A stretch of 43,193 bases of DNA from Chloroflexota bacterium (GCA_012689325.1 JAAYEA010000376.1:1-43193); one strand, 5' to 3'. Numbered from the stretch's first letter, positions 1,118 through 34,538 are shown. A program made the numbers and translations. The notes: generated from the sequence alone by a model not told the origin.

Positions 1118-1783
1118 TTAGCGATAAATACCCCGATACGCTTCCGGCAACAGCTCGGCCAGCCGCCGCATGATCAACTCCGTGGCCGCCTCCAGCTCCT
1201 CCCGGCTGGCCTTGCCGTCCACCTCGGGCAGGTAAAAGACCGGCCCGACCTTCGCCGTCACCCGGGCCCGGCGCAGCCGCCGAAGCGAGGGAAAAACCTT
1301 CTCCACCCCCGCGATGGCGACCGGCAGGAGCGGCGCGCCGCTGCGGTAGGCCAGATAGGCGGCCCCGCGCTTGCCCTGCTGCAAGCCGCCGGTCTTGGAC
1401 CGCGTCCCCTCGGGAGCGATCCCGATGACCCTGCCCGCCTCCAGGATCGCCAACGCCTGGCGCAGGGCCTGGCGGTCCACCTCGCCGCGCTGCACAAAGA
1501 TCACCCCCAACGGGCGCATGAAAAGGCCTTGGTACCGACGCTCATACTTTTCAGCGGCCATGACCGTGGCGGGGAAGGGCAGGATCGCGAATAGCAGCAG
1601 CGGATCGAGCCAGTGCAGGTGGTTGGTGAGCAGCAACAGAGGGCCGCCCGGAGGCAGATTCTCCAGGCCGGTGACCTCGAGCCGCGTGAACGCGCCGAAC
1701 AGGGCGCGACACAACGCTCGAAACAGGGTGCGGTAGAGGGGGTTCTGGGGCTGCAGACGCTCTTGTCGCATCGACTCGGCCAT
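1118..1783 (-). CDS. plsC: 1-acyl-sn-glycerol-3-phosphate acyltransferase (PlsC family)
   Basis: This enzyme transfers an acyl chain to lysophosphatidic acid to make phosphatidic acid at the cytoplasmic face of the membrane. The PlsC block I motif NHLHWLD is near residues 54-60, with the required H-x4-D, and the EGTRS motif is near 125-129. The length of about 221 residues is normal for the family. The start chosen is ATG at 1783; a TTG directly upstream is also in frame, and a GAGGAG sits about 15 nt upstream inside the end of the preceding gene. Only 9 nt separate it from the membrane ATPase gene, so it is probably co-transcribed with the two ATPase genes. Whether it serves general phospholipid synthesis or modifies the membrane for those proteins cannot be told. 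Confidence 0.88.
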   Translation of the reverse strand: MAESMRQERLQPQNPLYRTLFRALCRALFGAFTRLEVTGLENLPPGGPLLLLTNHLHWLDPLLLFAILPFPATVMAAEKYERRYQGLFMRPLGVIFVQRGEVDRQALRQALAILEAGRVIGIAPEGTRSKTGGLQQGKRGAAYLAYRSGAPLLPVAIAGVEKVFPSLRRLRRARVTAKVGPVFYLPEVDGKASREELEAATELIMRRLAELLPEAYRGIYR

Positions 1784-1792
1784 CAAGGGAGT

Positions 1793-3499
1793 CTAGCTCT
1801 CCTCTCGCTTCTTGAGCACTTCGCCCAGGTGCGAGCGCCAATCGCCGATGACATCAAGGTGGCCCAAGATGCTGCCCAGGCCCGCGAACAGGCTCACCGC
1901 CCACACCACCACCGACCCGATAAAGCTGGAGAAATAGTCCAGCTTCATGGTGGCGGTATAGGCCGGCACGCGGTTGGCCCCCTGGCCCTCGCCAGCGGCG
2001 GGGTATATATAGAGGTCCAGACGGCGCTCCCGCTCCATCAAGAACGGCAGGATCACATCCTGGAGGCGCACGTTCTTGTTGAGCCAGACGCCAAAACTCT
2101 GGCTCGCGTGCGGCTGGTTGAAGGTCAGCACATAGTTGCCGTCCACCGTGGTGATGTCTTGCTCATGCGGCGCCAGCTCGACCCGCACGGGCTGGACGTC
2201 GCCGTTCTCGCCGCGCTGCAGCTCCACCTCGAGCCTTTGCTCCTTCCCCAGGCTGAGCAGCGAGTCGTGGCGCACATAGCCGGTCACATTGAGCGCCGAG
2301 AGGGCGATGCGCTGGTTGACGTAGCGGTCGGCGAACAGGACCTCGGCGGAATAGAGCACGATGGTCGGGAGCGGCAACAGCAGCAGCAAGGCCAGGATAG
2401 CCGTCAGCGCATAGCGCGCGGCCCGGGCCTTCCACCCCGAAGCCTTGGGCAGGGCGCCCCGCGTCCCCTGCAGCGCCCGCTCATAGATCGGGTTGCGGAT
2501 CGCCGCCGGGCTGCTGGGGGCGATCGCCCCGATCATCGCCAGCCTGGACATCACGGGGTCCACCCGGCTAAAGAGGACGTCCCGCTTGGTCACGATCCGC
2601 TGGAGCAATTCGCGGGCGGGGCGGTCCCGCTCCAACTGCCGGGCGATGTGTTCCAGGTTGTCGTCGCTTTCCAGCACTTCAGCGATGGCCGCGTCGATGG
2701 CGGGGATGGTCAGCGCGGGCGCCTGGCGCAACTCGAGGATCGAGCAGATCCGCTGCACCAGGTAAGGATGCCCCCGGGTCTGGGCGTAGAGATAGTCGCT
2801 GGCCTTGCGGTCGATCTTGCAGCCCAGCGATTTCAGGTTGGAGACGAGTTTCCACACCTCGTCGGCATCGAGGTCCTGCAGATAGATCTTTTCGCAGATG
2901 TTGAGCGGCGAGTTCTCGCCGCTGGTCAGCTCATAGAGCTCGGTGGCCCCAGCGAGGATGAACACATACTTTTCAAAGGCCTGCTCGCTCTCTTTGCGAC
3001 GGCTGGTAAAGACGCTGCGGATGGTGCCGAAAAAGGTGCTCGAGATGCCCGCCGGGATCGCCCTTGCCTCGTCCAGCATGATCACGAGGCGTGGGGTCCG
3101 AGAGCGCTGGGCCACCTCCAAGAGAAAGCTCCGGAAAGCGAGCGGCCCCGTGACCTCCTCCAGTTCCTCGCGCGCCTGCTTGGTCAAGCGGAGTTGCCCG
3201 CCCAGGTCAGAGATGATCTGCCGGCAGACGAAACGATAGCAGTCCTCTTCCTGGCGATTCTCCAGAGGTGAGAGGTCCACGAAAGCCACGGCGCAATCCC
3301 GCTCCGCCAATAGGGCGCGGGCGTGGTAGAGCAGCGTCGTCTTGCCGGTCTGGCGGGGGCCGAGCACCGCGCCATAGCTGTGCACCCCAGGCTGGGTCGC
3401 CAGTCGCAGAACCTGCCACACCTCGCGGCGCTCGATCAGCACGTCGCGGTCCTGGGCCGGGTCCAGGGGCCCCTTAGTCTTGAACTTGCGGTCCCGCAT
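1793..3499 (-). CDS. Membrane-anchored AAA/STAND-like ATPase with extracytoplasmic domain
   Basis: The first 350 residues form a P-loop ATPase: Walker A GPRQTGKTT at 47-55, Walker B LVIMLDEA at 138-145, and a C-terminal subdomain with the RGHPYLVQ-type motif (243-250) common in AAA_35 and novel-STAND proteins. Two hydrophobic helices, about 363-388 and 526-545, enclose about 140 residues that would lie outside the membrane and look beta-rich; the last 20 residues return to the cytoplasm. The ATG at 3499 has AGGAG 6 nt upstream and lies inside the end of the propeller-ATPase gene (26 nt overlap), so the pair is translationally coupled. Signalling or a scaffolding role is inference. No effector domain (nuclease, TIR, protease) is visible. 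The ectodomain matches no family I recognise. Confidence 0.82.
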   Translation of the reverse strand: MRDRKFKTKGPLDPAQDRDVLIERREVWQVLRLATQPGVHSYGAVLGPRQTGKTTLLYHARALLAERDCAVAFVDLSPLENRQEEDCYRFVCRQIISDLGGQLRLTKQAREELEEVTGPLAFRSFLLEVAQRSRTPRLVIMLDEARAIPAGISSTFFGTIRSVFTSRRKESEQAFEKYVFILAGATELYELTSGENSPLNICEKIYLQDLDADEVWKLVSNLKSLGCKIDRKASDYLYAQTRGHPYLVQRICSILELRQAPALTIPAIDAAIAEVLESDDNLEHIARQLERDRPARELLQRIVTKRDVLFSRVDPVMSRLAMIGAIAPSSPAAIRNPIYERALQGTRGALPKASGWKARAARYALTAILALLLLLPLPTIVLYSAEVLFADRYVNQRIALSALNVTGYVRHDSLLSLGKEQRLEVELQRGENGDVQPVRVELAPHEQDITTVDGNYVLTFNQPHASQSFGVWLNKNVRLQDVILPFLMERERRLDLYIYPAAGEGQGANRVPAYTATMKLDYFSSFIGSVVVWAVSLFAGLGSILGHLDVIGDWRSHLGEVLKKREES

Positions 3500-6400
3500 C
3501 AGCTTCTCCTTCGGGGTGAGGCGCGGCGATCTGCTGCTGCAGCCCCTCGATCAGCGCCGGCACATCCTGGGTGCCCTCCACGATATCGGGGAAGGACTGC
3601 GCGGCAAAGGCGTAATACTGCCGCTGCCGATCCAGCACCGAGCAGAGCACCAGATGCTCCAGCGCCTCGTCCAGGGCCGCTGTCTGGACCTCCAGCGCGC
3701 AGCGATCGCGCAGGAGGCCGGCCAGGTCGCTCGCCGTCACCAGCGGGTTGTCGATCATCAACAGGGTGATCAGCCGCTCCAGGGGACTGGCGCTGCCCCA
3801 GATCACGGCCATATAGTACTCGGCGAAAAAGCGCGACCCGATGACCCCCTCCAGCGCCTCAACCGTCGCTTGCCGGGGCTCCTGCGCGCTGATCCCCAGC
3901 AAGAGCTGCTGGCAGATATACTGCACGACGTTGGGATGGCAGGAAGAGACGTCGCGGATCGCCTCCACCAGGGCGTCGGGGTCGGGAACCTGGATGCCCA
4001 TCTCGAGCATCGGCTCCAGGATGACCCGTTCCGCATCCGCGGGCAAGAGGTGGGTCAGGCGCAGCGTCTGGCAAAAGTTGAACAGGGGCGATTGCGCGTC
4101 GTTCAGCCGCGCGTTGAGCACCCGCTCCCCGCAAAAGACAAAGCGGCAGCGGTTCTCTTGCGAGAGCGCGCGGAAGGCGCGGAAGAGCTTTTCCTGGCGC
4201 GCCACGTCATGCGCCAGGAGCTCGTCCACCTCATCCAACAGGAACACGCGCAGTGCCTCGGCATCGCCCTTCTTGGCGGGCAACCGCGCCAGCATCTGCT
4301 CAAAGGCGTCCTCGGCGGAAGCGGGCGCGTCGACGCCCCAGCGGCTGCGAAACGCCTCCAAAAAGGCGGCCTCATCCTGGACGGCCTGGCAATCCACGTA
4401 GAACGGCTGATAGCCCGGCGTCTCGCCCAACAGGCGGTTCGCCTGCATCAGTACCGAGGTCTTGCCGATCTTGCGCCCGCCCACGATGGCAAAGCTGCGG
4501 TCCTGCACGGTGCGCAAGATGGTCTTGATCTCGGCGTCGCGACCAAAGAACATGCTCTCCGGGACCGGCCCGAAAGTAACGTATGGGCAGACCACCGCCA
4601 GATCGATCTGTTGCAGCAGCAGGCGAGTCAGGTGCTGCTCGCGCCGCCGGGCCGCGATGGTGCCGAAAACATCGGGGAAATCCAGCACGACGAAATCGTG
4701 CGCCCCCGTTTTGGCCAGCTCGCGCAGATCGGCAGCGCGGCTGGGCTGCGTCGCGTCCGCCCCAAAGACCAGCACCAGGGCGAAATAGCTGGTCATGTGC
4801 AAAACATCCATGACGTTGCGCAGGTCCTGGATATCCTCTGGCCCAAAGCTGGACTGGCGCATAAAGATGATGGGGAAACGCGGCGGAAGGCGCAGGCGCA
4901 GCGTGGGGCCCTCCACGACGTAGGCATGGAGCTGCTTGTAGGTCCGGCTCGTGACCCGCGTAAAGCCCATAAAGTTGCACAACTGGTTGATAAGTCGCGA
5001 GGTGGCCGCGCGAAAGGAGGCGGGGTCCGCCAGGCTGTCCTGCGCCGCCCGCCAGTTGCGCAGGAACGTCTCCACGCGCTTGGAGTCGGGCAGCTCCAGG
5101 CTTTCGGACTCGGCCCGCCAGGTCAAGTCCTGCTCGGGGTGCACCTCCCGGTAGCATTGCAGCGCCCCCGGCCGCAGCTCGAGCGGTATGCTGGGCAGGG
5201 CCTCGGCGGCCGCGCGCCCCGATGCCATGAGCGCCGCCCCGATCTCGGCATCCCACTGCTCCCAGTGTTCCTCCAGCGCCTGCACCGGGGTCGGCTCCTC
5301 GGACGTCCGGTTGCGACGGGCCCACCAAAGCCCGCCCGCCGCGCCTGCCGCCACCAGGCCGCCCACGCCCAGCCACGCCCACGGGAACCCGGCCGGCAGG
5401 CGGTCCTCGCCGGCCCAGACGCCGCTGTCGCGCACGGCGGCATAGAGCTTGCCCGGCTCCGCGGGATCGGCCAGCACGGCGCTCACCCAGCCGCCGGCAA
5501 AGAGCGGCGCCCACGTTTGACCGCCGTCGCGGCTCGCCAGGATGCCGGCATCCGTGCCCGCGTAGAGCGCTGGCTTGCTGCCCCCGCGCGCGGCCAGACA
5601 TTGCAGGGCCGCGTCGTGGGCCGCCAGCGAGCGCGCGCCCACGACCGCCCAGGATTTGCCGTTATCCTCGCTGCGATAGAGGCCATCGGACAGGGCCGCA
5701 TAGACGACCTGGCCCGAATCCACAGCGAGCACGGCCACGACCTCCGCCGCCGGCACAGCAGCGAGTCGCTGCCAGGTTGGGCGCTTGCCGGAAGAAGCAA
5801 GCTCGGCGCGGAACAGCCCATCGCGCGTCCCCGCGTAAAGGGCGCAGCGTTCGGAGCAAACGGCAGCCAGGGAGAGGATGCTGGCATCCGCCAACCCCTC
5901 GCCCAGCGCCTCCCAGGTCGCGCCCTGGTCCTGGCTCCAATAGACCCCCGCCCCATCGGTCCCGGCCACCAGCCGCGGCGCCCCCGGCTCGCCGGACAGG
6001 GCCGCCAGCGCCGTGACGGGAGCTCCCGACGCCACATCGTCGCACGCCAGCCGCCAGGACGCGCCGCGGTCATCGCTGCGATAGACCTGGCTGCCCCAGG
6101 TTCCCGCGTACAAGGGGCCCGCCTCGGCCAGGGCCAGGACGTTGAGCCCCTCGCCCCCGCGGCTATCCGACCAGGATTGGCCCCCGTCATCGCTATAGTG
6201 CATGCCCCAGTGCGTCGCCGCCACCAGGCGCCCGCGGCCCTCCGGCCACGCGAGCAACGCCTGGACGTCGCTGCCCACCAGGCCCGCGGACGCTGGCTCC
6301 CACGAGGCGCCCGCATCGCCGCTGCGCAAAATGCCGGCCCCCGTGCCCGCATATAACGCCCCAGGGCGACCGGGGTCCGTCGCCAAGGCGGTCACCATCC

Positions 6401-7310
6401 CCAGGCTCGACCCCACGGAGATCAACTCCCAGGTCGCCCCGCCGTCCTCGCTGCGCGCCAGGCCCCGGTCCCGGACCGCGGCATAGAGCGCGCCGGATGA
6501 GGCCGCTTGCGCCAGCCCGCCGATTGGCCCGCTCAGCTTCTCGCCGCCGACCGCCTGCCAGCTCTGGCCCGCGTCCGCGCTGCGATAGAGGCCCCGCTGC
6601 GTTCCGGCCAGCACGATCGGCGAGGGCGCGGCGCAGAGCAGCGACTCCACGCCAACCGCGGGCAGCCCCTCGGCTGCCTGCCAGGAGAGCCCCCCATCGC
6701 GACTGATGAACAAGCCCTGATCGGTGCCGACATACATGGCGTCCCCGCGCTCGGCGAGGGCCAGCGCCGTCACGCGCGTGGCCGCCAAGGGCTGCGCGCT
6801 CCAGGAGCGCCCGCCATCCAGGCTGCGATAGAGCGCGTCGCTGCCAGCAAAAAGGTGTGCGGGCTCGGAGGGGTGCGCGGCGAGGGCCCAGATGATCTTG
6901 GAGGGAGAAACAGAGCCCAGCAGCTCCCAGGTCTCGCCCGCATCGGCGCTCTGGTAAACCTGGCCGCTCTGGGTGCCAACCAAAACGCGCGCGATCGGGG
7001 AGGCGGGGGCAAAAGCGATGGATTGCGCGACCTCCGGCAAGGCCAGCCGCCAGCTCGCGCCGCCATCTTGGCTGCGGAACAAGCCCGCGCGCGTTCCGGC
7101 ATAGAGCACGCCTGGGCGCGCCGGGTCCGCCTGCAGGGCATAGACCTGCGCCCCGGCCGGCCCGGAGGTCTGCCGCCAGAGAGGCTCCTCGGCCAGGCAG
7201 GGTAGAGCCACCAGCGCCCAGGCAATGGCGAGCATACACAGCGCCCGCCGCGTCCGCTGCGCGCCATGCCGCTGCCCCTCGCCCCCTCGCGTGCGCCGCC
7301 TCGCTGGCAT
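3474..7310 (-). CDS. Transmembrane fusion: extracytoplasmic Asp-box beta-propeller, one TM helix, cytoplasmic STAND/AAA-like ATPase
   Basis: A signal sequence (about 20-40) is followed by a propeller region to about residue 635. It carries twelve canonical S/T-x-D-x-G-x-S/T-W Asp-boxes at about 80, 121, 163, 203, 244, 287, 330, 373, 412, 459, 547 and 593, plus two decayed units near 505 and 632. Unit spacing of 38-46 residues fits two seven-bladed propellers or one large VPS10/sialidase-like array. A membrane helix spans 643-664. Residues about 700-920 form an unrecognised domain, ending in a GPVPESMFFGRDAEI entry motif. The ATPase follows: Walker A GGRKIGKTS (944-952), Walker B RVFLLDEVDE (1021-1030) and a winged-helix-like tail. 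The start ATG has GAGG 5 nt upstream. The layout suggests a receptor whose outside propeller controls an inside NTPase; ligand and output are unknown. Confidence 0.85.
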   Translation of the reverse strand: MPARRRTRGGEGQRHGAQRTRRALCMLAIAWALVALPCLAEEPLWRQTSGPAGAQVYALQADPARPGVLYAGTRAGLFRSQDGGASWRLALPEVAQSIAFAPASPIARVLVGTQSGQVYQSADAGETWELLGSVSPSKIIWALAAHPSEPAHLFAGSDALYRSLDGGRSWSAQPLAATRVTALALAERGDAMYVGTDQGLFISRDGGLSWQAAEGLPAVGVESLLCAAPSPIVLAGTQRGLYRSADAGQSWQAVGGEKLSGPIGGLAQAASSGALYAAVRDRGLARSEDGGATWELISVGSSLGMVTALATDPGRPGALYAGTGAGILRSGDAGASWEPASAGLVGSDVQALLAWPEGRGRLVAATHWGMHYSDDGGQSWSDSRGGEGLNVLALAEAGPLYAGTWGSQVYRSDDRGASWRLACDDVASGAPVTALAALSGEPGAPRLVAGTDGAGVYWSQDQGATWEALGEGLADASILSLAAVCSERCALYAGTRDGLFRAELASSGKRPTWQRLAAVPAAEVVAVLAVDSGQVVYAALSDGLYRSEDNGKSWAVVGARSLAAHDAALQCLAARGGSKPALYAGTDAGILASRDGGQTWAPLFAGGWVSAVLADPAEPGKLYAAVRDSGVWAGEDRLPAGFPWAWLGVGGLVAAGAAGGLWWARRNRTSEEPTPVQALEEHWEQWDAEIGAALMASGRAAAEALPSIPLELRPGALQCYREVHPEQDLTWRAESESLELPDSKRVETFLRNWRAAQDSLADPASFRAATSRLINQLCNFMGFTRVTSRTYKQLHAYVVEGPTLRLRLPPRFPIIFMRQSSFGPEDIQDLRNVMDVLHMTSYFALVLVFGADATQPSRAADLRELAKTGAHDFVVLDFPDVFGTIAARRREQHLTRLLLQQIDLAVVCPYVTFGPVPESMFFGRDAEIKTILRTVQDRSFAIVGGRKIGKTSVLMQANRLLGETPGYQPFYVDCQAVQDEAAFLEAFRSRWGVDAPASAEDAFEQMLARLPAKKGDAEALRVFLLDEVDELLAHDVARQEKLFRAFRALSQENRCRFVFCGERVLNARLNDAQSPLFNFCQTLRLTHLLPADAERVILEPMLEMGIQVPDPDALVEAIRDVSSCHPNVVQYICQQLLLGISAQEPRQATVEALEGVIGSRFFAEYYMAVIWGSASPLERLITLLMIDNPLVTASDLAGLLRDRCALEVQTAALDEALEHLVLCSVLDRQRQYYAFAAQSFPDIVEGTQDVPALIEGLQQQIAAPHPEGEADAGPQVQD

Positions 7311-7388
7311 GCTACCTCACCGACCCGCCGCGAGTCGCGCTGGACCCAAGGTTGTGCGCTCCGCGATCAGCCATCAGCGTCCCGCCCT

Positions 7389-10300
7389 CTACGCCCAATC
7401 CAGTTGCACCGAGTCCTGTCCCAAGAGATCATCGAGCTTGCGGCGCAGCTCGGGGTTATACTTGGTGGTATAGTTGGGGAAATCCACCTGAAAAACCCCG
7501 GCCTGGCTGATCACCTTGAGGCAGTAGCGGTCGTGCCCGTTATAGCTCTTGAGCAGCTCGCAGATCTGGTTCAGCCGGCGCCGGTCCTGGTCCAGATCCC
7601 TGGTCCGCTGGAAGGTGATGCTGAGCTGCCGAGGCCGATCGGCCAGGGGATGATCTTCCCTGATCTCGGTAGGGTTGAACTCCCGAGCCGATTGGCAGAT
7701 CAACTTGGCGCGCTCGTCGCGATCATCCACCCGCCCCTTGACCACCAGAACCGTGTCCTCGGTCCACAACGCCTCCATGTCCTGATAGGCGTTGGGAAAG
7801 ACCACGACCTCCACGGAGCCGTGCAGATCCTCGAGCTGGACGAAGGCCATGGCCTTCTCGGTCTTGGTGGTGATGACGCGCACGCTGGTGACCATGCCGG
7901 CCACCTCCACCATCTGGCCCTTCATCGAGACGTCAAGCTGGCTGCAAGGGATCACGCCGGCGGGCAAGCGCATCAGCGCCTGCAGCGGGTGCTCGGAGAC
8001 ATACGTGTTGAGCAGCTCTTTCTCCCAGGCGCTCAGCGCCTTGGCCGGGATCGGGTCGATCCGCGGCAAGGGGTAGAACAGGGAGGCGCCGTCCTTGCTG
8101 TCGCTCAGGCCGTCCAGGTCGAAAAAGCTGCGTTGCCCAATGTCCTGGGCCGCATGGCGCTGGTGGCTATAGTTCACCATGCGCTCCGCGATCTCGAGCA
8201 ACTGGCCGCGCCCGCCAAAGCTATCCAGCGCGCCAGCTTTGATCAGGCATTCCAACACGCGACGGTTCACCTGGCGCAGGTCCACCCGCTCGCAAAAGTC
8301 GTCGATGCTCTGGAAAGGTTGCCCGTTCCGGCCCTGCAGAATGGCCTGCACCGGCCCCTCGCCGACATTCTTGATGGCGCTCAGGCCAAAACGGATGGCC
8401 GGCCGGCCAGTCACGCCCGGCGGCAGGCTTAGCGCCAGCCCGGCATTGTCGGCGGCCCACTTGACCTGGTCCTCGGGGATATAGGTGATCGCAAAGTCCA
8501 GGTCGCTCTCGTTCACGCTCGGCGGCAACACCTCGATGCCCATCCGCCGCGCTTCATTGGTCAACAAGCCCAGCTTTTCCGTGTTGTTCCGCTCGACGGA
8601 GAGGAGCGACGTCATGTACTCTACCGGATAGTTGGCCTTGAGATAAGCCGTATAGAGGGTGACCATGGCATAGGCGGCGCTGTGCGGCTTGTTGAAGCCA
8701 TAGTTGGCAAAATACATGATCGAGTCAAAGATAGTGTTGGCTTCTTCCGCGGACAGGCCGCGCTCCATCGCCCCCGCGACAAACTTTTCGCGGTGAGCGG
8801 TCAGCTCCTTCTCCTTCTTTTTGGAGACGGCGCGGCGCAACAGGTCGGCATCGCCGATGGAATAACCGGCCACGTCGCGAGCCATGCGCAGGATCTGCTC
8901 CTGGTAGACGCAGACGCCATAGGTTTCCTTGAGGATCGGCTCCAGCGCGGGGTGCGGATACTCGATCGGTTCTTCGCCATGCTTGCGCTTGATATAGTTG
9001 GGGATGAACTGCATCGGGCCGGGGCGATACAGTGAGATCAGGACCACCACGTCCTCGAACACCGTGGGGCGCAGCTCCACCAGGGTCCGCCGCATGCCCG
9101 CGCTCTCGAGCTGAAAGAGGCCGGTCACCTCGCCAGCGCAGAGGATCTGGAACGCCTTGGGATCGTCGAGCGGGATCGTCTCCAGGGTCAGCTCGATGCC
9201 ATGTTGCTGCTTGACCAGATCCATGGCGCGCTGCAAGATGGTCAGCGTCGAAAGCCCCAAAAAGTCGATCTTGAGCAGGCCGATCTCTTCCAGGGCCGTC
9301 ATGGAATAGGTGGCCAGGGTGCCCTCGCCATTGGGCGCGCGCTGCAGGGCCACATACTCGGTGAGCGGTTTATCGCCGATGACCACGCCCGCCGCGTGGG
9401 TGGAGGCATGGCGAGCCACGCCTTCCAGCGCCAGCGACTTGTCGATCCAATCCTTGACATAGTCCTGCGACGCGTACATCTGCTGGAGGGGTGAGCCTTC
9501 CTCCAGCGCGTCCTTGAGCTTGACCTTGGGGCCATAGGGCACCAGCTTGGCCACGCGGTCCACTTCCGGCAGCGGGACGCCCAGCGCCCGGCCCACGTCG
9601 CGGATCACGCCGCGGGCCGCCATGGTGCCAAAGGTGATGATCTGCGCCACGCGGTCCTGGCCGTACTTTTGGACCGTGTACTGGATCATCTCTTCGCGGC
9701 GGTCGTCGGGGATATCCAGGTCGATATCGGGCATGGTCACCCGGCCAGGGTTCAGGAAACGCTCAAAGAGCAGGTCGTGCTTGAGCGGGTCCAGCGCCGT
9801 GATGTTCAGCGAATAGGCCACGATGCTGCCCGCGCCGGAGCCACGCACCGACATGAGGATGCCGTGCTCTCGCGCATAGCGGCAGAGGTCCCAGACGATG
9901 AGGAAATAGGTGTCAAAGCCAAGCCGATGGATCAGGTCCAGCTCGTAATACAGGCGCTGCGTGACCTCAGCCGTGATGACGCTATAGCGCCTTTTGATAC
10001 CCTCCTCGCTCAGGTAGCGGAGGTAGCTCTCGGCGTCATATCCCGCCGGCACATCGAACGGGGGCAGGTGATATTGGGTGCGGTTGAGATTGACATGGCA
10101 GCGCTCCGCGATGGCCAGCGTGTTGGTCAGCGACTGTGGGACCGAGGCAAAAAGCTCGGCCATCTCGTCGGGGCTGCGCAGATAGTAATCCGGCGAGGAC
10201 ATGGTCATGCGCTTGGGGTCATCCATGGTGGTGCCGGTCTGGATGGCCAGCAGCAGCTCCTGGGCGGCAGCGTCCTCTTTGCGGATATAGTGGACATCGT

Positions 10301-10916
10301 TGGTCGCCACCAAGCCGAGATCCAACTCCCGGCTCAGGGCAATCAATTCGGCATTGACCTGGTCCAGCTCGGGCACGCCAGCATGCCGCTGCAGCTCGAG
10401 GTAAAAGTGGTCCTTGCCAAAAGTGTCGCGATGCCAGATGGCCGCTTCGCGGGCCTTCTCCCGGCTCCCCTGCGCGATCAGGCGCGGGACCTCGCCCGAG
10501 ATGCAGGCCGAAAGAAAGATGATCCCCTCGGTATTCTGGGATAGGAGCGCATGGTCCACGCGCGGGCGATAGTAAAAGCCCTCCATGTGCGCGCGGGAGA
10601 CGAGCTTGAGCAGGTTCTGATAGCCCTGTTGGTTCTCCGCCAGCGCCACCAAGTGGTAGGGGTGCGTGTCCAACTTGGGGTCTTTGTCGGTCATGGAGCG
10701 CGGGGCGACATACAGCTCGCAGCCGATGATGGGGTTGACGCCATAGTCCTGGGCCGCGTGGGCGAAATCGATCGCGCCATACATCACGCCATGGTCCGTG
10801 AGGGCGATGGCGGGCGAGCCCGCGTCGTGAGCGCGATGGCAAAGGCCTCTTAGCCGGCTCATGCCATCCAGCAACGAATACTCGCTGTGCACGTGGAGAT
10901 GTACGAATTCGGCCAT
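7389..10916 (-). CDS. dnaE: DNA polymerase III alpha subunit
   Basis: This is the replicative polymerase catalytic subunit. The N-terminal PHP domain opens with HLHVHSEYSLLDG. It keeps all expected metal ligands: H6, H8, H10, D41-H42, E67, H88, C138, D207 and H209. The polymerase aspartates are in PDIDLDIPD (D397, D399) and KIDFLGL (D551), and a C-terminal OB-fold is near residues 970-1070. The length of 1175 residues is normal for DnaE. The ATG at 10916 is chosen because the classic MAEFVHLHVHS start lies there; upstream in-frame codons would run into the glycosyltransferase gene, which stops at 10946. No intein is seen. It lies in a row of same-strand genes with no obvious functional partner among them. 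Confidence 0.97.
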   Translation of the reverse strand: MAEFVHLHVHSEYSLLDGMSRLRGLCHRAHDAGSPAIALTDHGVMYGAIDFAHAAQDYGVNPIIGCELYVAPRSMTDKDPKLDTHPYHLVALAENQQGYQNLLKLVSRAHMEGFYYRPRVDHALLSQNTEGIIFLSACISGEVPRLIAQGSREKAREAAIWHRDTFGKDHFYLELQRHAGVPELDQVNAELIALSRELDLGLVATNDVHYIRKEDAAAQELLLAIQTGTTMDDPKRMTMSSPDYYLRSPDEMAELFASVPQSLTNTLAIAERCHVNLNRTQYHLPPFDVPAGYDAESYLRYLSEEGIKRRYSVITAEVTQRLYYELDLIHRLGFDTYFLIVWDLCRYAREHGILMSVRGSGAGSIVAYSLNITALDPLKHDLLFERFLNPGRVTMPDIDLDIPDDRREEMIQYTVQKYGQDRVAQIITFGTMAARGVIRDVGRALGVPLPEVDRVAKLVPYGPKVKLKDALEEGSPLQQMYASQDYVKDWIDKSLALEGVARHASTHAAGVVIGDKPLTEYVALQRAPNGEGTLATYSMTALEEIGLLKIDFLGLSTLTILQRAMDLVKQQHGIELTLETIPLDDPKAFQILCAGEVTGLFQLESAGMRRTLVELRPTVFEDVVVLISLYRPGPMQFIPNYIKRKHGEEPIEYPHPALEPILKETYGVCVYQEQILRMARDVAGYSIGDADLLRRAVSKKKEKELTAHREKFVAGAMERGLSAEEANTIFDSIMYFANYGFNKPHSAAYAMVTLYTAYLKANYPVEYMTSLLSVERNNTEKLGLLTNEARRMGIEVLPPSVNESDLDFAITYIPEDQVKWAADNAGLALSLPPGVTGRPAIRFGLSAIKNVGEGPVQAILQGRNGQPFQSIDDFCERVDLRQVNRRVLECLIKAGALDSFGGRGQLLEIAERMVNYSHQRHAAQDIGQRSFFDLDGLSDSKDGASLFYPLPRIDPIPAKALSAWEKELLNTYVSEHPLQALMRLPAGVIPCSQLDVSMKGQMVEVAGMVTSVRVITTKTEKAMAFVQLEDLHGSVEVVVFPNAYQDMEALWTEDTVLVVKGRVDDRDERAKLICQSAREFNPTEIREDHPLADRPRQLSITFQRTRDLDQDRRRLNQICELLKSYNGHDRYCLKVISQAGVFQVDFPNYTTKYNPELRRKLDDLLGQDSVQLDWA

Positions 10917-10945
10917 GCTCAACTCGCAGTTCCCTTGCGCCAGGG

Positions 10946-12139
10946 TCAGCTCAGCAGCCCCTGATAGATGTTGGTGATCTGCCCGCCGGCCCAATCCCAG
11001 GAGTAGCGGTCCACCGCGCGCTGGCGCAATTGCTGCCCCAACGACGCGGCCCGCTGCGGGTCGTCCAACAAGGCAATGAGCGCCTCGGCGAATGCGGCCA
11101 CGTCCCCTGGCGGCGCATAGACGCCATGCTCGCCCATGTACTCCCGGCTGACCGGCGTATCGAAAGCCACCACCGGCATAGCCATGGACATATAGTTGAG
11201 CAGCTTGCCACTGCCCTCGGTGGCGGAGAGCTTGGGAGCCACCGCGATATCGCCCATCGCCAGAAAGCGCGGCGCGCCCTCCGGATAGGGCACCCGCCCG
11301 GTAAAGGTCACATAATCATCGAGCCCCAGGCCGTGCGCCTGCATCCGATAGCGCTCCACGCCCGGGTAGCCCATGATCAAAAAGTGCGTCTTGGGGCGGG
11401 CGCGGACCACCTGCTTGGCGGCCTCCAAGAGCAGCCCGGTCCCCTGGTACTCGGCCAGCAACCCCAGGTAGGCCACGACCTGCCGCTCGGCCGGGATCCC
11501 CCATTGCATCTTGAGCACGCGCGCGCTCTGGCGCAACGTTGGCGAAAAGACATCGGCGTTGACGCAATCGGGGATGGGCGTGATCAGCGACGTGTCCACA
11601 TGGAACTGGTCCTGCAAAAGCTGCGCCGCATGGAGCGAACTGGTGAGGATCGCATGCGGCAGCCGGTTCAGCGTCTTTTCCAGGCGCAGCCAGGGCTTGA
11701 AAAGCCACCCCTCCGGGTTCAAAAAATGGTGGTCCACCATCTCGCTGGTCATGCTGCCCTGAAAGTCGAACACCAGCGGCACATCCCACAGCAGGCTCAT
11801 GGGATAGCCGGCGAAAACGCCCTCATGCAGGTGCGCATGGATGATATCGGGGCGCCGCCTGGTGAAACTGGCGCATTTGGCGGCCAGCAAGAGATCGAAG
11901 GCCACCTTGTGGCGAGACGACCCCACCTCATAGCCCTTGCGCCAGGGGACGGGCAGGGTCCGCTCGATGCGCAACCCCTCCACGTCCTGCCCGTTGTGAT
12001 AGGTCACGATGGTCACTTCATGGCCCATCTTGACCAGGACGCGCGCCTCTTCCAGTATTCTAACATGGCATCCGTACGAGGCAAAAAAGCTCGTCGGAGC
12101 GATCATGAGGACATTATAGCTGCTCTTGTTTTCTCTCAT
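10946..12139 (-). CDS. Glycosyltransferase family 4 (GT-B fold)
   Basis: This is a retaining, nucleotide-sugar-dependent glycosyltransferase. The N-terminal Rossmann start VLMIAPTSFFASYG with HVRILEEA and the C-terminal donor site ATEGSGKLLNYMSMAMPVVAF are typical of the GT4 (glycogen-synthase/RfaB-like) family. The length is about 397 residues. The ATG at 12139 gives a normal N-terminus but overlaps the end of the preceding glycosyltransferase gene by 26 nt and has no clear Shine-Dalgarno site. A GTG at 12151 and an ATG at 12106 are alternatives. It pairs with the upstream GT2 gene, so both probably work on a lipid-linked or surface polysaccharide. The acceptor cannot be inferred. Confidence 0.9.
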   Translation of the reverse strand: MRENKSSYNVLMIAPTSFFASYGCHVRILEEARVLVKMGHEVTIVTYHNGQDVEGLRIERTLPVPWRKGYEVGSSRHKVAFDLLLAAKCASFTRRRPDIIHAHLHEGVFAGYPMSLLWDVPLVFDFQGSMTSEMVDHHFLNPEGWLFKPWLRLEKTLNRLPHAILTSSLHAAQLLQDQFHVDTSLITPIPDCVNADVFSPTLRQSARVLKMQWGIPAERQVVAYLGLLAEYQGTGLLLEAAKQVVRARPKTHFLIMGYPGVERYRMQAHGLGLDDYVTFTGRVPYPEGAPRFLAMGDIAVAPKLSATEGSGKLLNYMSMAMPVVAFDTPVSREYMGEHGVYAPPGDVAAFAEALIALLDDPQRAASLGQQLRQRAVDRYSWDWAGGQITNIYQGLLS

Positions 12140-28515: not shown

Positions 28516-29766
28516 CTAGTTGGGCCTCTCCAAACGGATCCGCAACGCCAACAAGGTGTGATCCTGGCGCTGTATGGCCAGCACGCTGGCCAGGTTTCCT
28601 GCCGCAGCCGGCGCGCGGCTCTCGTCTATAAAAGAGCTCGCGTCCAGATAAACGACTTGCTGCACGCCCGAATCGAGCCTGAGGGTCCACGACTCGCGGG
28701 CCATCGAGACGACGCGCCCGCTGAACCGCTGCTCCTCGGACGGGTTGATCTCCTCCACGAGGATATAGGTCGCCCGCACGGAGCCGTCCGCCTGCTGCGC
28801 TCCGGACACCTCCGCGGTCAACCCCACGTGACCTTGCCGAGGGATCTCGGCGCCCGCGATCCACACGCGGGTGCCGGATACGGTCCACCAGTCGCCCTGC
28901 ATCGCCTCGATGACGCCCTCGAACTCGACCTGTTGCGCGGCCTCTCCGGGCGCTGAGGTGACGATGCGTCGGGCCAGCACCGACCCATCGGCCCGCCGCT
29001 CGCCGCGCACGTCGGCGATGCGCCCCAGGGCGATCTCGCCGACGATCTGGGTCTCGCCGTCGGTGACTACCTTGGCGCCGGACACGGTGAGCCTCAACGC
29101 CGAACCGGCGCCTTCGATGGCCTCGATGTTGCCTCTGAGCTCGTAAGGGGTCGCCTCGATGGCGCCGATGCGGACCTGGATTCGCTCGGCCACCAGCGAG
29201 CCGCTGCCATCACCGCTGGCATACACCAGCGCCCAGTCGCCGATGACGGGCTGATAGCCCGCTGGCTCCACGACGGTGGAGGCGATCACCAGCACGTCTT
29301 GGCCGGCCACGGTCCACAGCACGTCTCCCGCGCCTCCGACGGGCGTCATGGCCGAGATGCGCCCCTCGAAGCGCACCTTGGTGGGCCGCGGCGGCGTGAC
29401 CGCGGACAGGGAGACGCGCGTGTTCGCTCCCGCATGCCAGACCAGGGTCTGGTCCACGGCCACATTGGCGACCTTGAAGGTGATCGCCTCGCCTTCCTGG
29501 CCGCCATCGCGGCCCGCGCGAGCGGGATTATCGGCCGCGATATCCATCATAAAGATGGACTGGTTCAGATAGCAGTAGCAGACGCCCTCGGCGACCTTGG
29601 CATCGCCGATCCAGGCGGTGAGCGACGCATAGGGTGGTAAAGCCTTGCCATCCAGCGTGATATAGCCATAGAAACCCGCCCTGGGAGCAGCGGCGATGCT
29701 TGCTGATCTCGGCACAAGGAAGAGGGAGAGCAGGAGCAAGGAGATCAGTAAGGTTTTTCTACCCAT
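28516..29766 (-). CDS. Secreted protein with four DUF5666 repeats
   Basis: A cleavable signal peptide (KTLLISLLLLSLFLVPRSASIAAA) leads into an approximately 100-residue beta-rich domain beginning GFYGYITLDGKALPP. Four DUF5666-type repeats follow, each about 60-70 residues with a FEGxIxAM...W-x-V-x-G core and a DGSxxAxRI end (about 132-200, 208-269, 280-339 and 347-413). The same repeat forms the outside part of the anti-sigma factor encoded just upstream, which suggests that the two proteins bind a common partner or each other. ATG 29766 has AGGAGG 7 nt upstream. Confidence 0.8.
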   Translation of the reverse strand: MGRKTLLISLLLLSLFLVPRSASIAAAPRAGFYGYITLDGKALPPYASLTAWIGDAKVAEGVCYCYLNQSIFMMDIAADNPARAGRDGGQEGEAITFKVANVAVDQTLVWHAGANTRVSLSAVTPPRPTKVRFEGRISAMTPVGGAGDVLWTVAGQDVLVIASTVVEPAGYQPVIGDWALVYASGDGSGSLVAERIQVRIGAIEATPYELRGNIEAIEGAGSALRLTVSGAKVVTDGETQIVGEIALGRIADVRGERRADGSVLARRIVTSAPGEAAQQVEFEGVIEAMQGDWWTVSGTRVWIAGAEIPRQGHVGLTAEVSGAQQADGSVRATYILVEEINPSEEQRFSGRVVSMARESWTLRLDSGVQQVVYLDASSFIDESRAPAAAGNLASVLAIQRQDHTLLALRIRLERPN

Positions 29767-29869
29767 GACGAGGCCTCCTGAAGCGCCACGAACAGGCAGC
29801 AGCGCCAACGGACGTGATGGCGAGTTGTATTCCCCCAGGAACGCATCGCAACAGATTGGTGTCGCACAC

Positions 29870-31696
29870 TCAGGGCATAACGATCGGATTGGACGTTGGC
29901 CGCGGCCGCACCACGCCCGGCGTCTTGGCGGCGAGCGTCGGCTGCGTCTGCGAGATGGCCGTCTCCGTGGGCAGCGGCGACGGTTCTGGCGTCACCGCGG
30001 TGCCCTGCGTCGGCGCGGGCGTTGGCGTCGCTGGCACCAGAGCCACCGTTGGCGACGGCTCTGGCTCCGCAGACACCCGAATCCAGCGCGCCACCAAAGT
30101 GCCGTCCGCCTTTTGCACGGCCTCTACCTCGGCCAGCCGGCCCACCGCCGGAGCGCCCTCGATGGCCGTCTCGGCGGTAATCTTGATCGCGCGCCCCTCC
30201 ACGACCCACTCGGTGGCGGAAAAGCTCTGGATGGCGCCCTCGAACTGCACGACGATCTCGGGCTCCAAGACCCGGATATGCGTGGCGGTCCACGGTCCAT
30301 CTTGGAAACGCTTGGCCCGGACTGCGGCCATTCGCCCCACCACCGGCGTGCCCTCGATGGTCGTATCGGGCGCGATGCGCACCGCCTGCCCGCTGACCAC
30401 CCATGCGGCGTCGGTAAAGGACTCGATCAGGCCCTGGAACTCGGTGACCTCGGGCTCGCGCGCGGCGGGACGCTCGATGACGATCTCGAGCGCCACCAGC
30501 GCGCCATCCGAGTCGCGCCGTACCGCCGTGACCCGCGCCCAGGCTCCCACCTCGGCGGGGCCGCCGCGCTTGTCGATCACCGTCTCCGCGGTCACGAGCA
30601 CCGTCTCGCCGCCGACCTGCCAGGAATCCTGGCCGATCTGGGAGATCGAGCCGGAGAACTGCAGCTTGATCACGCGCGGCTGGGTCGGCGTCGCCGTGGC
30701 GGTCGAGGTCGCGCTAGGGGTCAGGGTGCGCGTCCGAGTCCGCGTTGAGGTGGGCTCCGCCGTCGACGTGGACGTGCGGGAAGGCGTGGGCGACGCGGTA
30801 TCCGGCGGGATCGGCGTCTTGGTGGGCTCCGCGGTCTGGGTCTCCGTAGGGATGGCCGTGGCCGTACCGACCGGCGTGTTCGTCGGCGCCGGCAGCGGCG
30901 TATCGGTGTTGACCACAGCGGGAACCGTGGCCGAGGAGGTCGGAACCGCGGTCGGCGCCGCCATGTCGCTCTCGATCTCGATCCTGCGCGCCAGCACCGA
31001 GCCGTCCGGCTGGGTCCAGGCTTCCACCTTGACCTCGGCACCGCTCCCCAGCGCGGGCGCCAGGGTCACGTCGCTGGGCAGGGTCACGGTCACACCGCCG
31101 ATCACCACCACGGTATCCGAGATGATGTCCAACGTGCCGGTGAAGGCCACGCTCGCCGCGCGCCGCTCCTCCAGGAGCGACTTGGTTTCCGCGATGCGCC
31201 GCTCCTCGAAGGCATCTCGAAGGTCTTCTTTGGCCACGTTATCGAAGGTCAGCCAGAGCTGCACCTTTTCGCGGACCAGCTTGACGGGGTAAAAGACATC
31301 ACCAGGCAGGCTGCGCGCCGAAGCGACCAGCGCGCCCCCACCCAGGGAAAGCGCCGCAAAAGCCAGGACCAGCGCCGCCGTGGCGAATCCCCTGGCCAGC
31401 GTCGCGGGCGCGCCGCCCAGGTTCCGCCACCACGCCGACGCGCGAGCCAGCAGGGAACGTTGACGGCGCTCGCGCAGGACCACGGCCTGCTCCAGAAACT
31501 GCCGGCGACCGGCCGCTAGGGCGGCTGCAGAACGCGGGGGCACGGGCTGCAATGCGCGCAACTGCCAGGCAGCACGAAGCAAGGGAGCCAGTCGTTCTGC
31601 TTCTTCGGGATGCTGTGCCAGGCAAGCACGCAGGTCTTGTTCAGACCCAATTTGGTTGAGGCACTGGTCTAGTAACGACTCAAAATCCTGGCTCAC
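29870..31696 (-). CDS. Transmembrane anti-sigma factor with DUF5667 and four DUF5666 repeats
   Basis: The cytoplasmic N-terminus (1-100) would hold the sigma factor; one helix spans about 103-127. DUF5667 follows (129-185: SLPGDVFYPVKLVREKVQLWL), then DUF5666 repeats at about 183-242, 346-408, 417-476 and 482-542. Thr/Pro/Ser-rich linkers (248-340 and 545-600) suit passage through a wall. No zinc-finger (H-x3-C-x2-C) is present, so it is not a ZAS-type anti-sigma factor. The GTG start overlaps the sigma gene by 17 nt and has GGAGGAAGG upstream, which points to a matched sigma/anti-sigma pair. How the signal is released is unknown. Confidence 0.85.
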   Translation of the reverse strand: MSQDFESLLDQCLNQIGSEQDLRACLAQHPEEAERLAPLLRAAWQLRALQPVPPRSAAALAAGRRQFLEQAVVLRERRQRSLLARASAWWRNLGGAPATLARGFATAALVLAFAALSLGGGALVASARSLPGDVFYPVKLVREKVQLWLTFDNVAKEDLRDAFEERRIAETKSLLEERRAASVAFTGTLDIISDTVVVIGGVTVTLPSDVTLAPALGSGAEVKVEAWTQPDGSVLARRIEIESDMAAPTAVPTSSATVPAVVNTDTPLPAPTNTPVGTATAIPTETQTAEPTKTPIPPDTASPTPSRTSTSTAEPTSTRTRTRTLTPSATSTATATPTQPRVIKLQFSGSISQIGQDSWQVGGETVLVTAETVIDKRGGPAEVGAWARVTAVRRDSDGALVALEIVIERPAAREPEVTEFQGLIESFTDAAWVVSGQAVRIAPDTTIEGTPVVGRMAAVRAKRFQDGPWTATHIRVLEPEIVVQFEGAIQSFSATEWVVEGRAIKITAETAIEGAPAVGRLAEVEAVQKADGTLVARWIRVSAEPEPSPTVALVPATPTPAPTQGTAVTPEPSPLPTETAISQTQPTLAAKTPGVVRPRPTSNPIVMP

Positions 31697-32618: not shown

Positions 32619-34538
32619 ATGATCTTGCCCGACGAAATGTTCATGGAGGGCCTGGAGGAAAAAGCCAGGTCCGATCGGCATCCCGCAGCCTGGCGTGAGG
32701 TGATGCGCTGGCTGGAGGAGCGCTCTGTCCAAGAGCTGCGCCAGCTCGCCCAAGTGCGCGGCGCGTCGCCCCATGCCACGCGCAAAGTAGAGCTTGTCGC
32801 CGAGCTGGTGGGCTTGCTGACCAATCGGGAAAGCGTGGAGCGCGCCATCGCGGAGGTGAGCGAAGCCGAGCTGGCCACCCTGCAGATGGTCTATCTGCTG
32901 GCCACGGAGGAAGGGCTCTCCCGGCAAGAGGTTCAAAAGGCCCTCCTGGCCTGGTATGGCCCCCTGGTGGCCAAGGATGCGACAGCCCACCTGGAGAACC
33001 TGCGCTCTCGGGCCCTTCTCTTTGGCACGCCCGATGCCGCTGGGGCCACCGCCCGTTTCCAGCTGCCGAAAGCGGTGGCCGCCTGCCTTCACTCCCTCCG
33101 CAAACCCATCGAATCGCTGACGCTCTCGGAAGATAGCCAGACCCGCCATTTGCCCACCTCGCTCTTGCTCGAAGCCATCCTGGCGCTATGGCAATACACC
33201 AAAGAAAGCGCCATGCGCATACGGGGCCTGAGCATGGCCTCATCAGGCCAGCCGCAGGAACCGGGAGAGTATAGCGAACAGCCCAACCTGAACCGATGGC
33301 TGGAAGAACAACAGCGCGGGCAAGAGATCGACAACGACGAGTTGTACGTCGATATCCCCCTCCCTGCCCACGGTCTGGAGCCCGCCGACCTGAGCGAGCT
33401 GGCCCGGGCAACGGGCTGCCCGCCCGAGATGATCGAGTTCATTTGCGCGCTGCTGCTCGAGATGGGCTTGGTGACCCTCGCCGCCGACGAGCTTCAGGTC
33501 AACGAGCTGGCCATGGAACGCTATCGCCGGCACGGCGAGGTGCAAAAGCTCCAGGCATTGACCCTGGCCTGGTTGGGGACCTCGCGGTGGAGCGAGCTGC
33601 GCCTGGCCGCGGGACGCATGCAGGCCCGCTTGCAGCGCCATATCCGCGCCCAAGAGGTCGGGTACCGCCAGATCAGCCAGGATATCTCGCACACCCGTCA
33701 GTTCATCGCCCGGCTCCTGAGCCTGCTGGACAAGAACCGCTGGTATAGCCTGGACTCTTTGCTGGAGGCCATCGGGCAACTGTGCCCCGATCTGGCCTGC
33801 CTCGCCCAGAGCCAGGTCGCGCTGTTGCCCCGGTGGCGGCTGGCAGGTCCCGAGGCCAAGCCGATTGCCCATACCAATGCGGCGGCGTGGCGCCAAAGTT
33901 ACGGCCAGATCGTGGCCGCCACGGTAGAGGGGCCCCTGGCCTGGCTGGGATGCGTGAGCCTGGCCTATCGCGATGGCGAGCTCGTGGCCTTCCAGTTGAA
34001 CGGGCTCGGCCAATACGTGCTGGGGCGCTTCCCCCGCGCCCTCTCCAGCGGCGGCGATATGCGCCCGCTGACCGTCGCCGAGGACCTGACCATCAGCGTG
34101 CAGTTGGGGCGCGTGGATGCCGAGATCCACGACTTTCTGGGGCAATTCACCGACCTCGTCGAAGCCGAGTCCGACATCTTTCGGTATCGCATCTCGCCTC
34201 AGCAGCTCAACCAGGCGCTGGAAAGCGGGATCACGCTCCAGGGTATCCTCTCCTTTCTCGAACGGGTGAGCGGCGCGGCGCTGCCCGATAGCGCCAAACG
34301 CAAGCTGACCGAATGGTGCGATTCCTATGGCTCGGTTCGCCTTTATGAAGGGCTGACGGTCATCGAGTTCGCCGATGACTATGCCCTTCGGGAGCTGATG
34401 AACACCACCTCCCTGGCGGACCACCTGATCTACCAGCTCTCACCGCGCATGGTGGTGATCGAGCCGGACTCCCTGGAGGCCCTCATGTCCGAGATGGTCA
34501 AGAAGGGGTACACTCCCAAAGTCGAGGAGGCGCCCTGA
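32619..34538 (+). CDS. SAP-like plus XPB/Ssl2 N-terminal-like (Helicase_C_3) protein
   Basis: A 639-residue cytoplasmic protein. Residues about 35-68 fit the SAP DNA-binding pattern (SVQELRQLAQVRG...RKVELVAEL). A winged-helix-like middle part and a C-terminal region at about 482-632 resemble PF13625 (helicase XPB/Ssl2 N-terminal domain): ISVQLGRVDAEIHDFL, YRISPQQLNQALESG and GILSFLERVSGAALP. It is a diverged paralogue of the next gene: both also share an AWLGCVSLAY / HWLGVVSLGW block followed by VAFQLNGLGQYVLG / VAFRVTPIGAQILG. No Walker motif is present. AGGTG lies 7 nt upstream of the ATG, and the stop overlaps the next start (TGATG). Confidence 0.75.
   Translation: MILPDEMFMEGLEEKARSDRHPAAWREVMRWLEERSVQELRQLAQVRGASPHATRKVELVAELVGLLTNRESVERAIAEVSEAELATLQMVYLLATEEGLSRQEVQKALLAWYGPLVAKDATAHLENLRSRALLFGTPDAAGATARFQLPKAVAACLHSLRKPIESLTLSEDSQTRHLPTSLLLEAILALWQYTKESAMRIRGLSMASSGQPQEPGEYSEQPNLNRWLEEQQRGQEIDNDELYVDIPLPAHGLEPADLSELARATGCPPEMIEFICALLLEMGLVTLAADELQVNELAMERYRRHGEVQKLQALTLAWLGTSRWSELRLAAGRMQARLQRHIRAQEVGYRQISQDISHTRQFIARLLSLLDKNRWYSLDSLLEAIGQLCPDLACLAQSQVALLPRWRLAGPEAKPIAHTNAAAWRQSYGQIVAATVEGPLAWLGCVSLAYRDGELVAFQLNGLGQYVLGRFPRALSSGGDMRPLTVAEDLTISVQLGRVDAEIHDFLGQFTDLVEAESDIFRYRISPQQLNQALESGITLQGILSFLERVSGAALPDSAKRKLTEWCDSYGSVRLYEGLTVIEFADDYALRELMNTTSLADHLIYQLSPRMVVIEPDSLEALMSEMVKKGYTPKVEEAP

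What the first reader, a model, noticed from the sequence alone, without database searches (positions are those of the whole stretch)
3474..7310. Asp-box propeller receptor fused across the membrane to a STAND/AAA-like ATPase
One polypeptide joins a signal peptide, at least twelve Asp-box repeats, one membrane helix, an unrecognised 200-residue domain and a P-loop ATPase with intact Walker A and B. The outside-sensor/inside-NTPase layout resembles a receptor form of STAND immune or signalling ATPases, which are mostly soluble. I know of no described system with this architecture.
Basis: partly seen in the sequence, partly recalled or inferred. Interest (0 to 1): 0.72.

Follow-up and report, generated by a model that had tools for sequence, protein, structure and literature searches.

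The report
Membrane propeller receptor with paired ATPase
A bacterial gene pair encodes an outside-facing double propeller joined through the membrane to an immune-type ATPase plus a partner ATPase; relatives swap sensors on the first protein and enzymes such as caspases, TIRs, kinases and cyclases on the second, which suggests a little-described modular way of passing signals across the membrane.

Summary
ORF 3474-7310 (-) is one 1278-aa protein, "A": export signal, 12 strict Asp boxes, membrane helix, cytosolic domain and P-loop ATPase. AlphaFold2 plus Foldseek place the ectodomain with GH74-type tandem seven-bladed propellers. The "unrecognised" domain is predicted as a PD-(D/E)XK-like fold without the catalytic motif. 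The ATPase matches Pfam nSTAND1 (33 of 33 homologues). The join is no artefact: about 25 independent Anaerolineae genomes carry it.

The overlapping next gene (1793-3499) encodes a second ATPase, "B" (AAA_35), with two membrane helices and an ectodomain. A and B co-occur (33 genomes both, 10 A only, 6 B only, 347 neither) and diverge together (r = 0.95). Across relatives A's N-terminus varies (propeller, tubulin-like, EAD7, TIR, receiver) and B's appended module varies (CHAT, caspase-like, TIR, kinase, cyclase, SpoIIE, membrane module).

Best reading: A senses, B delivers the output; a receptor-type variant of nSTAND/EAD systems. Ligand, direction of signalling and this B's own output are inferred. 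In several families A sits directly behind dnaE, which argues against a mobile defence island. New variant of a known kind; interest about 0.62.

The parts
3474..7310 (-). Protein A (1278 aa): receptor ATPase
   Evidence: homologues
7188..7244 (-). Signal peptide / N-terminal hydrophobic segment, aa 23-41
   Evidence: hydropathy; same feature in many homologues
5391..7178 (-). Extracytoplasmic tandem beta-propeller, aa 45-640: 14 blade tryptophans, read as 2 x 7 blades, 12 strict Asp boxes
   Evidence: pLDDT 87; GH74 tandem propellers, E 5e-28
5313..5381 (-). Single membrane helix, aa 644-666
   Evidence: AlphaFold2 helix; homologue hydropathy; weak by hydropathy in this copy
4653..5024 (-). 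Degenerate PD-(D/E)XK-like core, aa 763-886, preceded by a helical segment aa 675-760
   Evidence: AlphaFold2 pLDDT 90; weak Foldseek hits EcoT38I, EndoMS, PaqCI, RPB5; no ExK on the third strand
3951..4574 (-). nSTAND1/AAA_22 P-loop ATPase, aa 913-1120
   Evidence: Cdc6/Orc-like distant PDB matches
4458..4481 (-). Walker A GGRKIGKT, aa 944-951
4227..4247 (-). Walker B (LLDEVD), about aa 1022-1028
3474..3499 (-). 26-bp overlap of A's end with B's start (translational coupling likely)
1793..3499 (-). Protein B (568 aa): partner ATPase
   Evidence: AAA_35 2.5e-20; 15/15 homologues
2465..3484 (-). AAA_35 ATPase of B, aa 6-345, Walker A GPRQTGKT at aa 47
2354..2410 (-). B membrane helix 1, aa 364-382
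1922..2353 (-). B extracytoplasmic domain, aa 383-526 (looks beta-rich, not modelled)
   Evidence: between the two helices; alignable in 13 of 15 B proteins
1865..1921 (-). B membrane helix 2, aa 527-545
7389..10994 (-). dnaE (DNA polymerase III alpha), 78 bp upstream of A; neighbour, not part of the claimed module

Best explanation
A and B form a two-protein, ATP-driven transmembrane signalling relay. A is the input half: its double propeller outside the membrane binds a ligand (unknown; a glycan or a surface protein is most likely), and the event is passed through one helix to a cytosolic non-catalytic PD-(D/E)XK-like domain and an nSTAND1 ATPase, which then exchanges nucleotide and/or multimerises as STAND ATPases do. 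A then engages B, a second STAND-like ATPase (AAA_35). In most relatives B carries the output enzyme. In this genome B carries two membrane helices and an ectodomain, so the output is either a membrane event or B is a co-receptor handing on to something else. Shown by computation: architecture, intact ATPase motifs, conserved pairing, swapping of modules. Inferred: ligand binding, nucleotide switch, direction A to B, the output.
For: One-polypeptide architecture conserved in about 25 genomes of the class. B lies directly downstream, often overlapping; 39 linked pairs plus 9 pairs with B elsewhere in the genome. Co-occurrence 33/10/6/347. A and B distances correlate: r = 0.95 over 39 linked pairs, r = 0.79 in the propeller clade, 0 of 5000 permutations as high. 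Inputs swap on A: propeller, Tubulin_2, EAD7, TIR_2, Response_reg. Outputs swap on B: TIR (L041), CHAT (L046, L193, L195), Pkinase (L138, L142, L149), Guanylate_cyc (L125), SpoIIE with or without GAF (L049, L052, L141), ProA-like (L200), caspase-like by its SGHG and DACHSG motifs (L144). Where A has lost the propeller but keeps the helix (L041, L042, L046), B carries a soluble TIR or CHAT instead of the membrane module. The only residues invariant in the propellers are Trp/Gly/Ser/Thr/Ala, with no invariant acidic pair as an enzyme would need. Two-propeller sensor ectodomains such as BT4663 are among the structural matches.
Against: No ligand, no activity and no physical A-B contact have been shown. 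The window's B has no recognisable enzyme. Some genomes have B without a detectable A (G036, G094, G194) or A without B (G234). The distance correlation and co-occurrence partly reflect linkage and vertical descent. The nSTAND1 match of the full-length window protein is just under the curated cut-off (26.8 against 27.1), and above it for the cytosolic half (28.9).
Confidence: 0.6

Rival explanations
1. The pair is specifically an immune or programmed-cell-death system: the propeller recognises phage or hostile cells at the surface, and A/B triggers a suicidal effector.
For: Effectors on B in relatives are classic conflict modules: CHAT, caspase-like, TIR, antiphage_ProA-like, EAD7. nSTAND1 and EAD7 belong to the conflict systems of PMC8195603.
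Against: Other B outputs are ordinary signalling enzymes (kinase, cyclase, SpoIIE phosphatase). One copy per genome here. Conserved position behind dnaE in f1, f36 and f42. No convincing PADLOC hit for the window's A or B. The propeller is less conserved than the cytosolic half but not hypervariable (31-42% against 38-53% identity, L048 apart).
Confidence: 0.3
2. Envelope enzyme or transporter: the propeller is a glycan hydrolase or glycan binder and the ATPases drive an envelope process rather than signalling.
For: Closest solved structures are GH74 xyloglucanases; NCBIfam names the propeller an F510_1955 'glycosylhydrolase' above cut-off; an acyltransferase and a glycosyltransferase lie nearby.
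Against: No invariant acidic pair in 22 propellers. The same A core occurs without a propeller or a membrane helix, with tubulin-like, EAD7, TIR or receiver N-termini. B carries signalling or effector enzymes in relatives.
Confidence: 0.12
3. A replication- or repair-linked ATPase: cotranscription with dnaE, the Cdc6-like ATPase and the REase-like fold point to DNA.
For: dnaE lies directly upstream, with overlapping ends in f42; Cdc6/Orc matches; PD-(D/E)XK-like topology.
Against: No dnaE upstream in f39, f7 or f3, which share A and B. The outside propeller and the helix. The Cdc6 similarity is shared by STAND-like ATPases in general (general knowledge). Catalytic residues of the nuclease fold are missing.
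Confidence: 0.05
4. The join of propeller and ATPase is an assembly artefact.
For: Metagenome assembly of 580 contigs.
Against: Same fusion in about 25 independent assemblies and several GTDB families.
Confidence: 0.005

Closest known systems
nSTAND1-centred EAD conflict systems (Kaur et al. 2021, eLife 10:e70394, PMC8195603)
   Same: nSTAND1-family ATPase in A; relatives with EAD7, TIR, caspase-like and kinase modules
   Different: Sensor is an extracytoplasmic N-terminal propeller across a membrane helix; a degenerate REase-like domain precedes the ATPase; a second AAA_35 ATPase partner carries the output
nSTAND2 two-gene operon (same paper, Fig. 6C)
   Same: Two adjacent genes, each with a STAND ATPase; one protein carries variable effector modules
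   Different: There one ATPase is eroded and the effectors are mostly GT4 or HEPN; here both Walker sets are intact, A1 members match nSTAND1 and not nSTAND2, and B matches AAA_35. One distant A relative (L049) does match nSTAND2 at 27.5 bits
GH74 xyloglucanases and other Asp-box tandem propellers
   Same: Two seven-bladed Asp-box propellers; best PDB matches
   Different: No conserved acidic pair found; fused to a membrane helix and an ATPase
Bacteroides hybrid two-component glycan sensors (BT4663 type)
   Same: Tandem propellers outside, signalling domain inside
   Different: Output is a STAND-like ATPase pair, not histidine kinase and receiver
Vps10/sortilin receptors
   Same: Asp-box propeller plus one membrane helix; Pfam Sortilin-Vps10 5.5e-23
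   Different: Sortilins have one ten-bladed propeller and no ATPase (general knowledge; PMC2716378 for the ten-bladed fold)

Membership tests
STAND NTPases (nSTAND1) | Walker A and B intact | tested here: met
STAND NTPases (nSTAND1) | Pfam PF20703 match above curated cut-off | tested here: met
   cytosolic half 28.9 against 27.1; 33/33 homologues match at E <= 0.01; full-length protein 26.8, just under
STAND NTPases (nSTAND1) | C-terminal winged-helix after the ATPase | not tested
   aa 1121-1250 are conserved but were not modelled
STAND NTPases (nSTAND1) | Sensor repeats at the C-terminus, effector at the N-terminus (classical order) | tested here: not met
   sensor-like propeller is N-terminal, no repeats after the ATPase
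STAND NTPases (nSTAND1) | Ligand-induced nucleotide exchange and multimerisation | not testable with these tools
   needs protein
nSTAND2 two-gene system | Both proteins of the nSTAND2 family, one with eroded NTP motifs | tested here: not met
AAA_35 family (protein B) | PF14516 above cut-off | tested here: met
   73 bits against 27; 15/15 members match
PD-(D/E)XK fold (domain aa 763-886) | alpha-beta-beta-beta-alpha-beta core | tested here: inconclusive
   topology fits with high model confidence, but Foldseek hits are weak: EcoT38I E 0.016, EndoMS E 0.086; no sequence match
PD-(D/E)XK nucleases | Catalytic D and (D/E)xK | tested here: not met
   no conserved acid/Lys pattern on strands 2-3
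GH74 glycoside hydrolases | Tandem seven-bladed Asp-box propellers | tested here: met
GH74 glycoside hydrolases | Catalytic Asp pair | tested here: inconclusive
   no invariant Asp/Glu among 22 propellers; GH74 catalytic positions not aligned one by one
Known anti-phage defence systems | PADLOC model match | tested here: not met
   A only PDC-S27 at E 0.002, B none; some relatives' B modules hit effector models

The most novel reading that the evidence does not exclude
A general bacterial signalling design not described in the literature I could search: a STAND-to-STAND relay, comparable in logic to two-component systems, in which interchangeable sensors (including a transmembrane propeller receptor) sit on one ATPase and interchangeable outputs (caspase, CHAT, TIR, kinase, cyclase, phosphatase, membrane module) sit on a co-inherited partner ATPase.
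Probability: 0.35. Interest if true: 0.85.

Novelty: new variant of a known kind. Interest (0 to 1): 0.62.

Why it matters
STAND ATPases are mostly known as single soluble proteins that sense inside the cell. Here one is wired to an outside-facing double propeller, and its partner ATPase carries the output. If right, bacteria have a receptor form of this switch, and the natural swaps of sensor and output make it directly testable which half senses and which acts. It also gives a function hypothesis for AAA_35 proteins, for which the held literature has no paper naming the Pfam accession.

Tried and rejected
Assembly artefact: rejected. Propeller only on loosely related ATPases: rejected. The short (about 700 aa) homologues have no separate propeller gene upstream; upstream are kinase/FecR, histidine kinase, peptidase or dnaE genes, so these are losses or replacements. 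nSTAND2 two-gene system: considered, family test not met. Sequence search of the PDB with the cytosolic domain: nothing useful. Paper searches for Asp-box plus STAND, AAA_35 or PF14516, paired STAND, and nSTAND1 found no description of this layout. First attempt at the C-terminal query used a wrong frame; first A-B distance script read a wrong column, corrected.

Full report
OBSERVATION. The open frame 3474-7310 on the minus strand encodes one 1278-residue protein, here called A. It holds a hydrophobic export segment (aa 23-41), 12 strict Asp boxes against 0.003 expected from shuffles, a helix at aa 644-666, and a P-loop ATPase with intact Walker A and B. The membrane helix is weak by hydropathy in this copy because it is rich in Gly and Ala, but it is modelled as a helix and is clearly hydrophobic in 24 of 25 other propeller-bearing homologues. 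The window is from a metagenome assembly of 580 contigs; the nearest named record is a Chloroflexi MAG and most relatives are Anaerolineae.

FOLD OF THE PARTS. AlphaFold2 with 22 homologues models aa 36-690 with mean pLDDT 87 and pTM 0.81. The best solved matches are GH74 xyloglucanases, which are tandem seven-bladed Asp-box propellers (E 5e-28; TM-score by query length mostly 0.61-0.66, lower for a few); periplasmic sensor ectodomains of BT4663 type follow. The 14 regularly spaced blade tryptophans agree with 2 x 7 blades, and two f36 homologues (L090, L071) have an ectodomain of about half the length. The only residues invariant in 22 propellers are Trp, Gly, Ser, Thr and Ala, with no invariant acid, so a binding role is more likely than hydrolysis (inference). 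Foldseek hits are weak but include members of that fold class (EcoT38I, EndoMS, PaqCI and RPB5; that RPB5 belongs there is from general knowledge), among other hits such as acetyl-CoA carboxylase and clamp loader chains. The catalytic acid/Lys pattern is absent. I take it as a degenerate REase-like domain with moderate confidence.

FAMILY. All 33 aligned cytosolic halves match Pfam nSTAND1 and 32 match AAA_22; distant PDB matches are Cdc6/Orc ATPases.

CONSERVATION OF THE FUSION. In 396 genomes of the class, 43 have the cytosolic half at E <= 1e-30. In the tree of ATPase cores the window lies in a well-supported clade of 29 rows: 24 with propeller, 4 with only a membrane helix, 1 cut off at its end. 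The helix-only forms arise at least twice within it. In 400 genomes drawn from the phylum only three match at E <= 1e-40, one of them outside the class.

THE PARTNER. The next gene, 1793-3499, overlaps A by 26 bp. It is a second ATPase (AAA_35, 2.5e-20; 15/15 homologues) with intact Walker motifs, two membrane helices and a 144-residue segment between them. B follows A directly in family f1 and in f39, f7, f3, f12, f14 and more distant lineages. Where it does not (f36, f42) a B-like gene lies elsewhere in most of the genomes tested. Co-occurrence over 396 genomes is 33 both, 10 A only, 6 B only, 347 neither (Fisher p 3e-33, not corrected for relatedness). A and B distances correlate with r = 0.95 in 39 linked pairs and 0.79 in the propeller clade; linkage and descent contribute to this.

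MODULE SWAPPING. N-termini of A: propeller plus helix; helix only; Tubulin_2 (L124-L126, L130, L132, L134-L143 except L141, L145, L147; Pfam tested on four of them, the rest by phmmer); EAD7 twice (L096); TIR_2 (L144) and a receiver domain (L133); none. Modules on B: membrane-ectodomain-membrane (window, L040 and f39); TIR (L041; L042 is its near twin by alignment); CHAT (L046 C-terminal, f36 N-terminal); Ser/Thr kinase; guanylate/adenylate cyclase; SpoIIE phosphatase with or without GAF; an antiphage_ProA-like region in f42; a caspase-like domain in L144 by motif; EAD7 inside B in L095. When A lost the propeller in L041, L042 and L046, B carried a soluble effector instead of the membrane module. 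This pattern, inputs on A and outputs on B, is the main reason for the relay reading.

MECHANISM. Shown: parts, pairing, intact ATPase sites, swapping. Inferred from knowledge of STAND ATPases: ligand binding outside changes A's nucleotide state or clustering, A engages B, B's attached module acts. For this genome the output is unknown, since B has no enzyme; a membrane event or a co-receptor role are the open options.

ROLE. For conflict: the effectors in relatives and the nSTAND1/EAD7 families described in PMC8195603. Against a mobile defence system here: single copy, dnaE directly upstream in the f1, f36 and f42 loci that hold enough upstream sequence to judge, no convincing PADLOC hit, and signalling enzymes among the outputs. 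I leave the role open, about 0.3 for immunity or cell death.

NOVELTY. PMC8195603 describes a two-gene operon of two nSTAND2 ATPases, one eroded, with GT4 or HEPN effectors. The present pair differs in family, in both ATPases being intact and in having an outside receptor. PMC10907252 reports STAND systems with a predicted periplasmic sensor protein in one bacterium, so outside-facing STAND sensors are not wholly unheard of. I found no paper on the present architecture in the held library, which lacks most subscription journals. Hence: new variant of a known kind.

Noticed in passing
window 3474-10994: A lies directly behind dnaE in three GTDB families (f1, f36, f42), with overlapping ends in f42, but not in f39, f7 or f3; no reason for the link is evident.
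   Followed up: partly
L124-L126, L130, L132, L134-L140, L142, L143, L145, L147: A-type ATPases fused to a tubulin-like (Tubulin_2) N-terminus, many followed by a B protein with kinase or cyclase; seen in Chloroflexota, UBP9, CPR1 and a Burkholderiales-labelled MAG (the last nearly identical to UBP9, perhaps mis-binned).
   Followed up: partly
L193-L199 (f36 genomes): B-type ATPases with an N-terminal CHAT protease domain, unlinked from the propeller A gene; some f36 genomes (G036, G094, G194) have a B-type gene without a detectable A.
   Followed up: partly
own genome C417, C552, C481, C328, C40, C79, C406, C148, C122: Nine other contigs carry Asp-box propeller genes, several in long open frames (up to 1506 aa); architectures not examined.
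   Followed up: no
window 28516-31696: Two neighbouring paralogues with DUF5666 repeats, one with DUF5667.
   Followed up: no
window 32619-36796: Two adjacent genes with Helicase_C_3 domains, the second with Tfb2 similarity (XPB/TFIIH-like parts).
   Followed up: no
window 1118-1786: Acyltransferase (PlsC-like) gene just downstream of B; a homologue also lies next to the pair in L040 and near it in L041.
   Followed up: no
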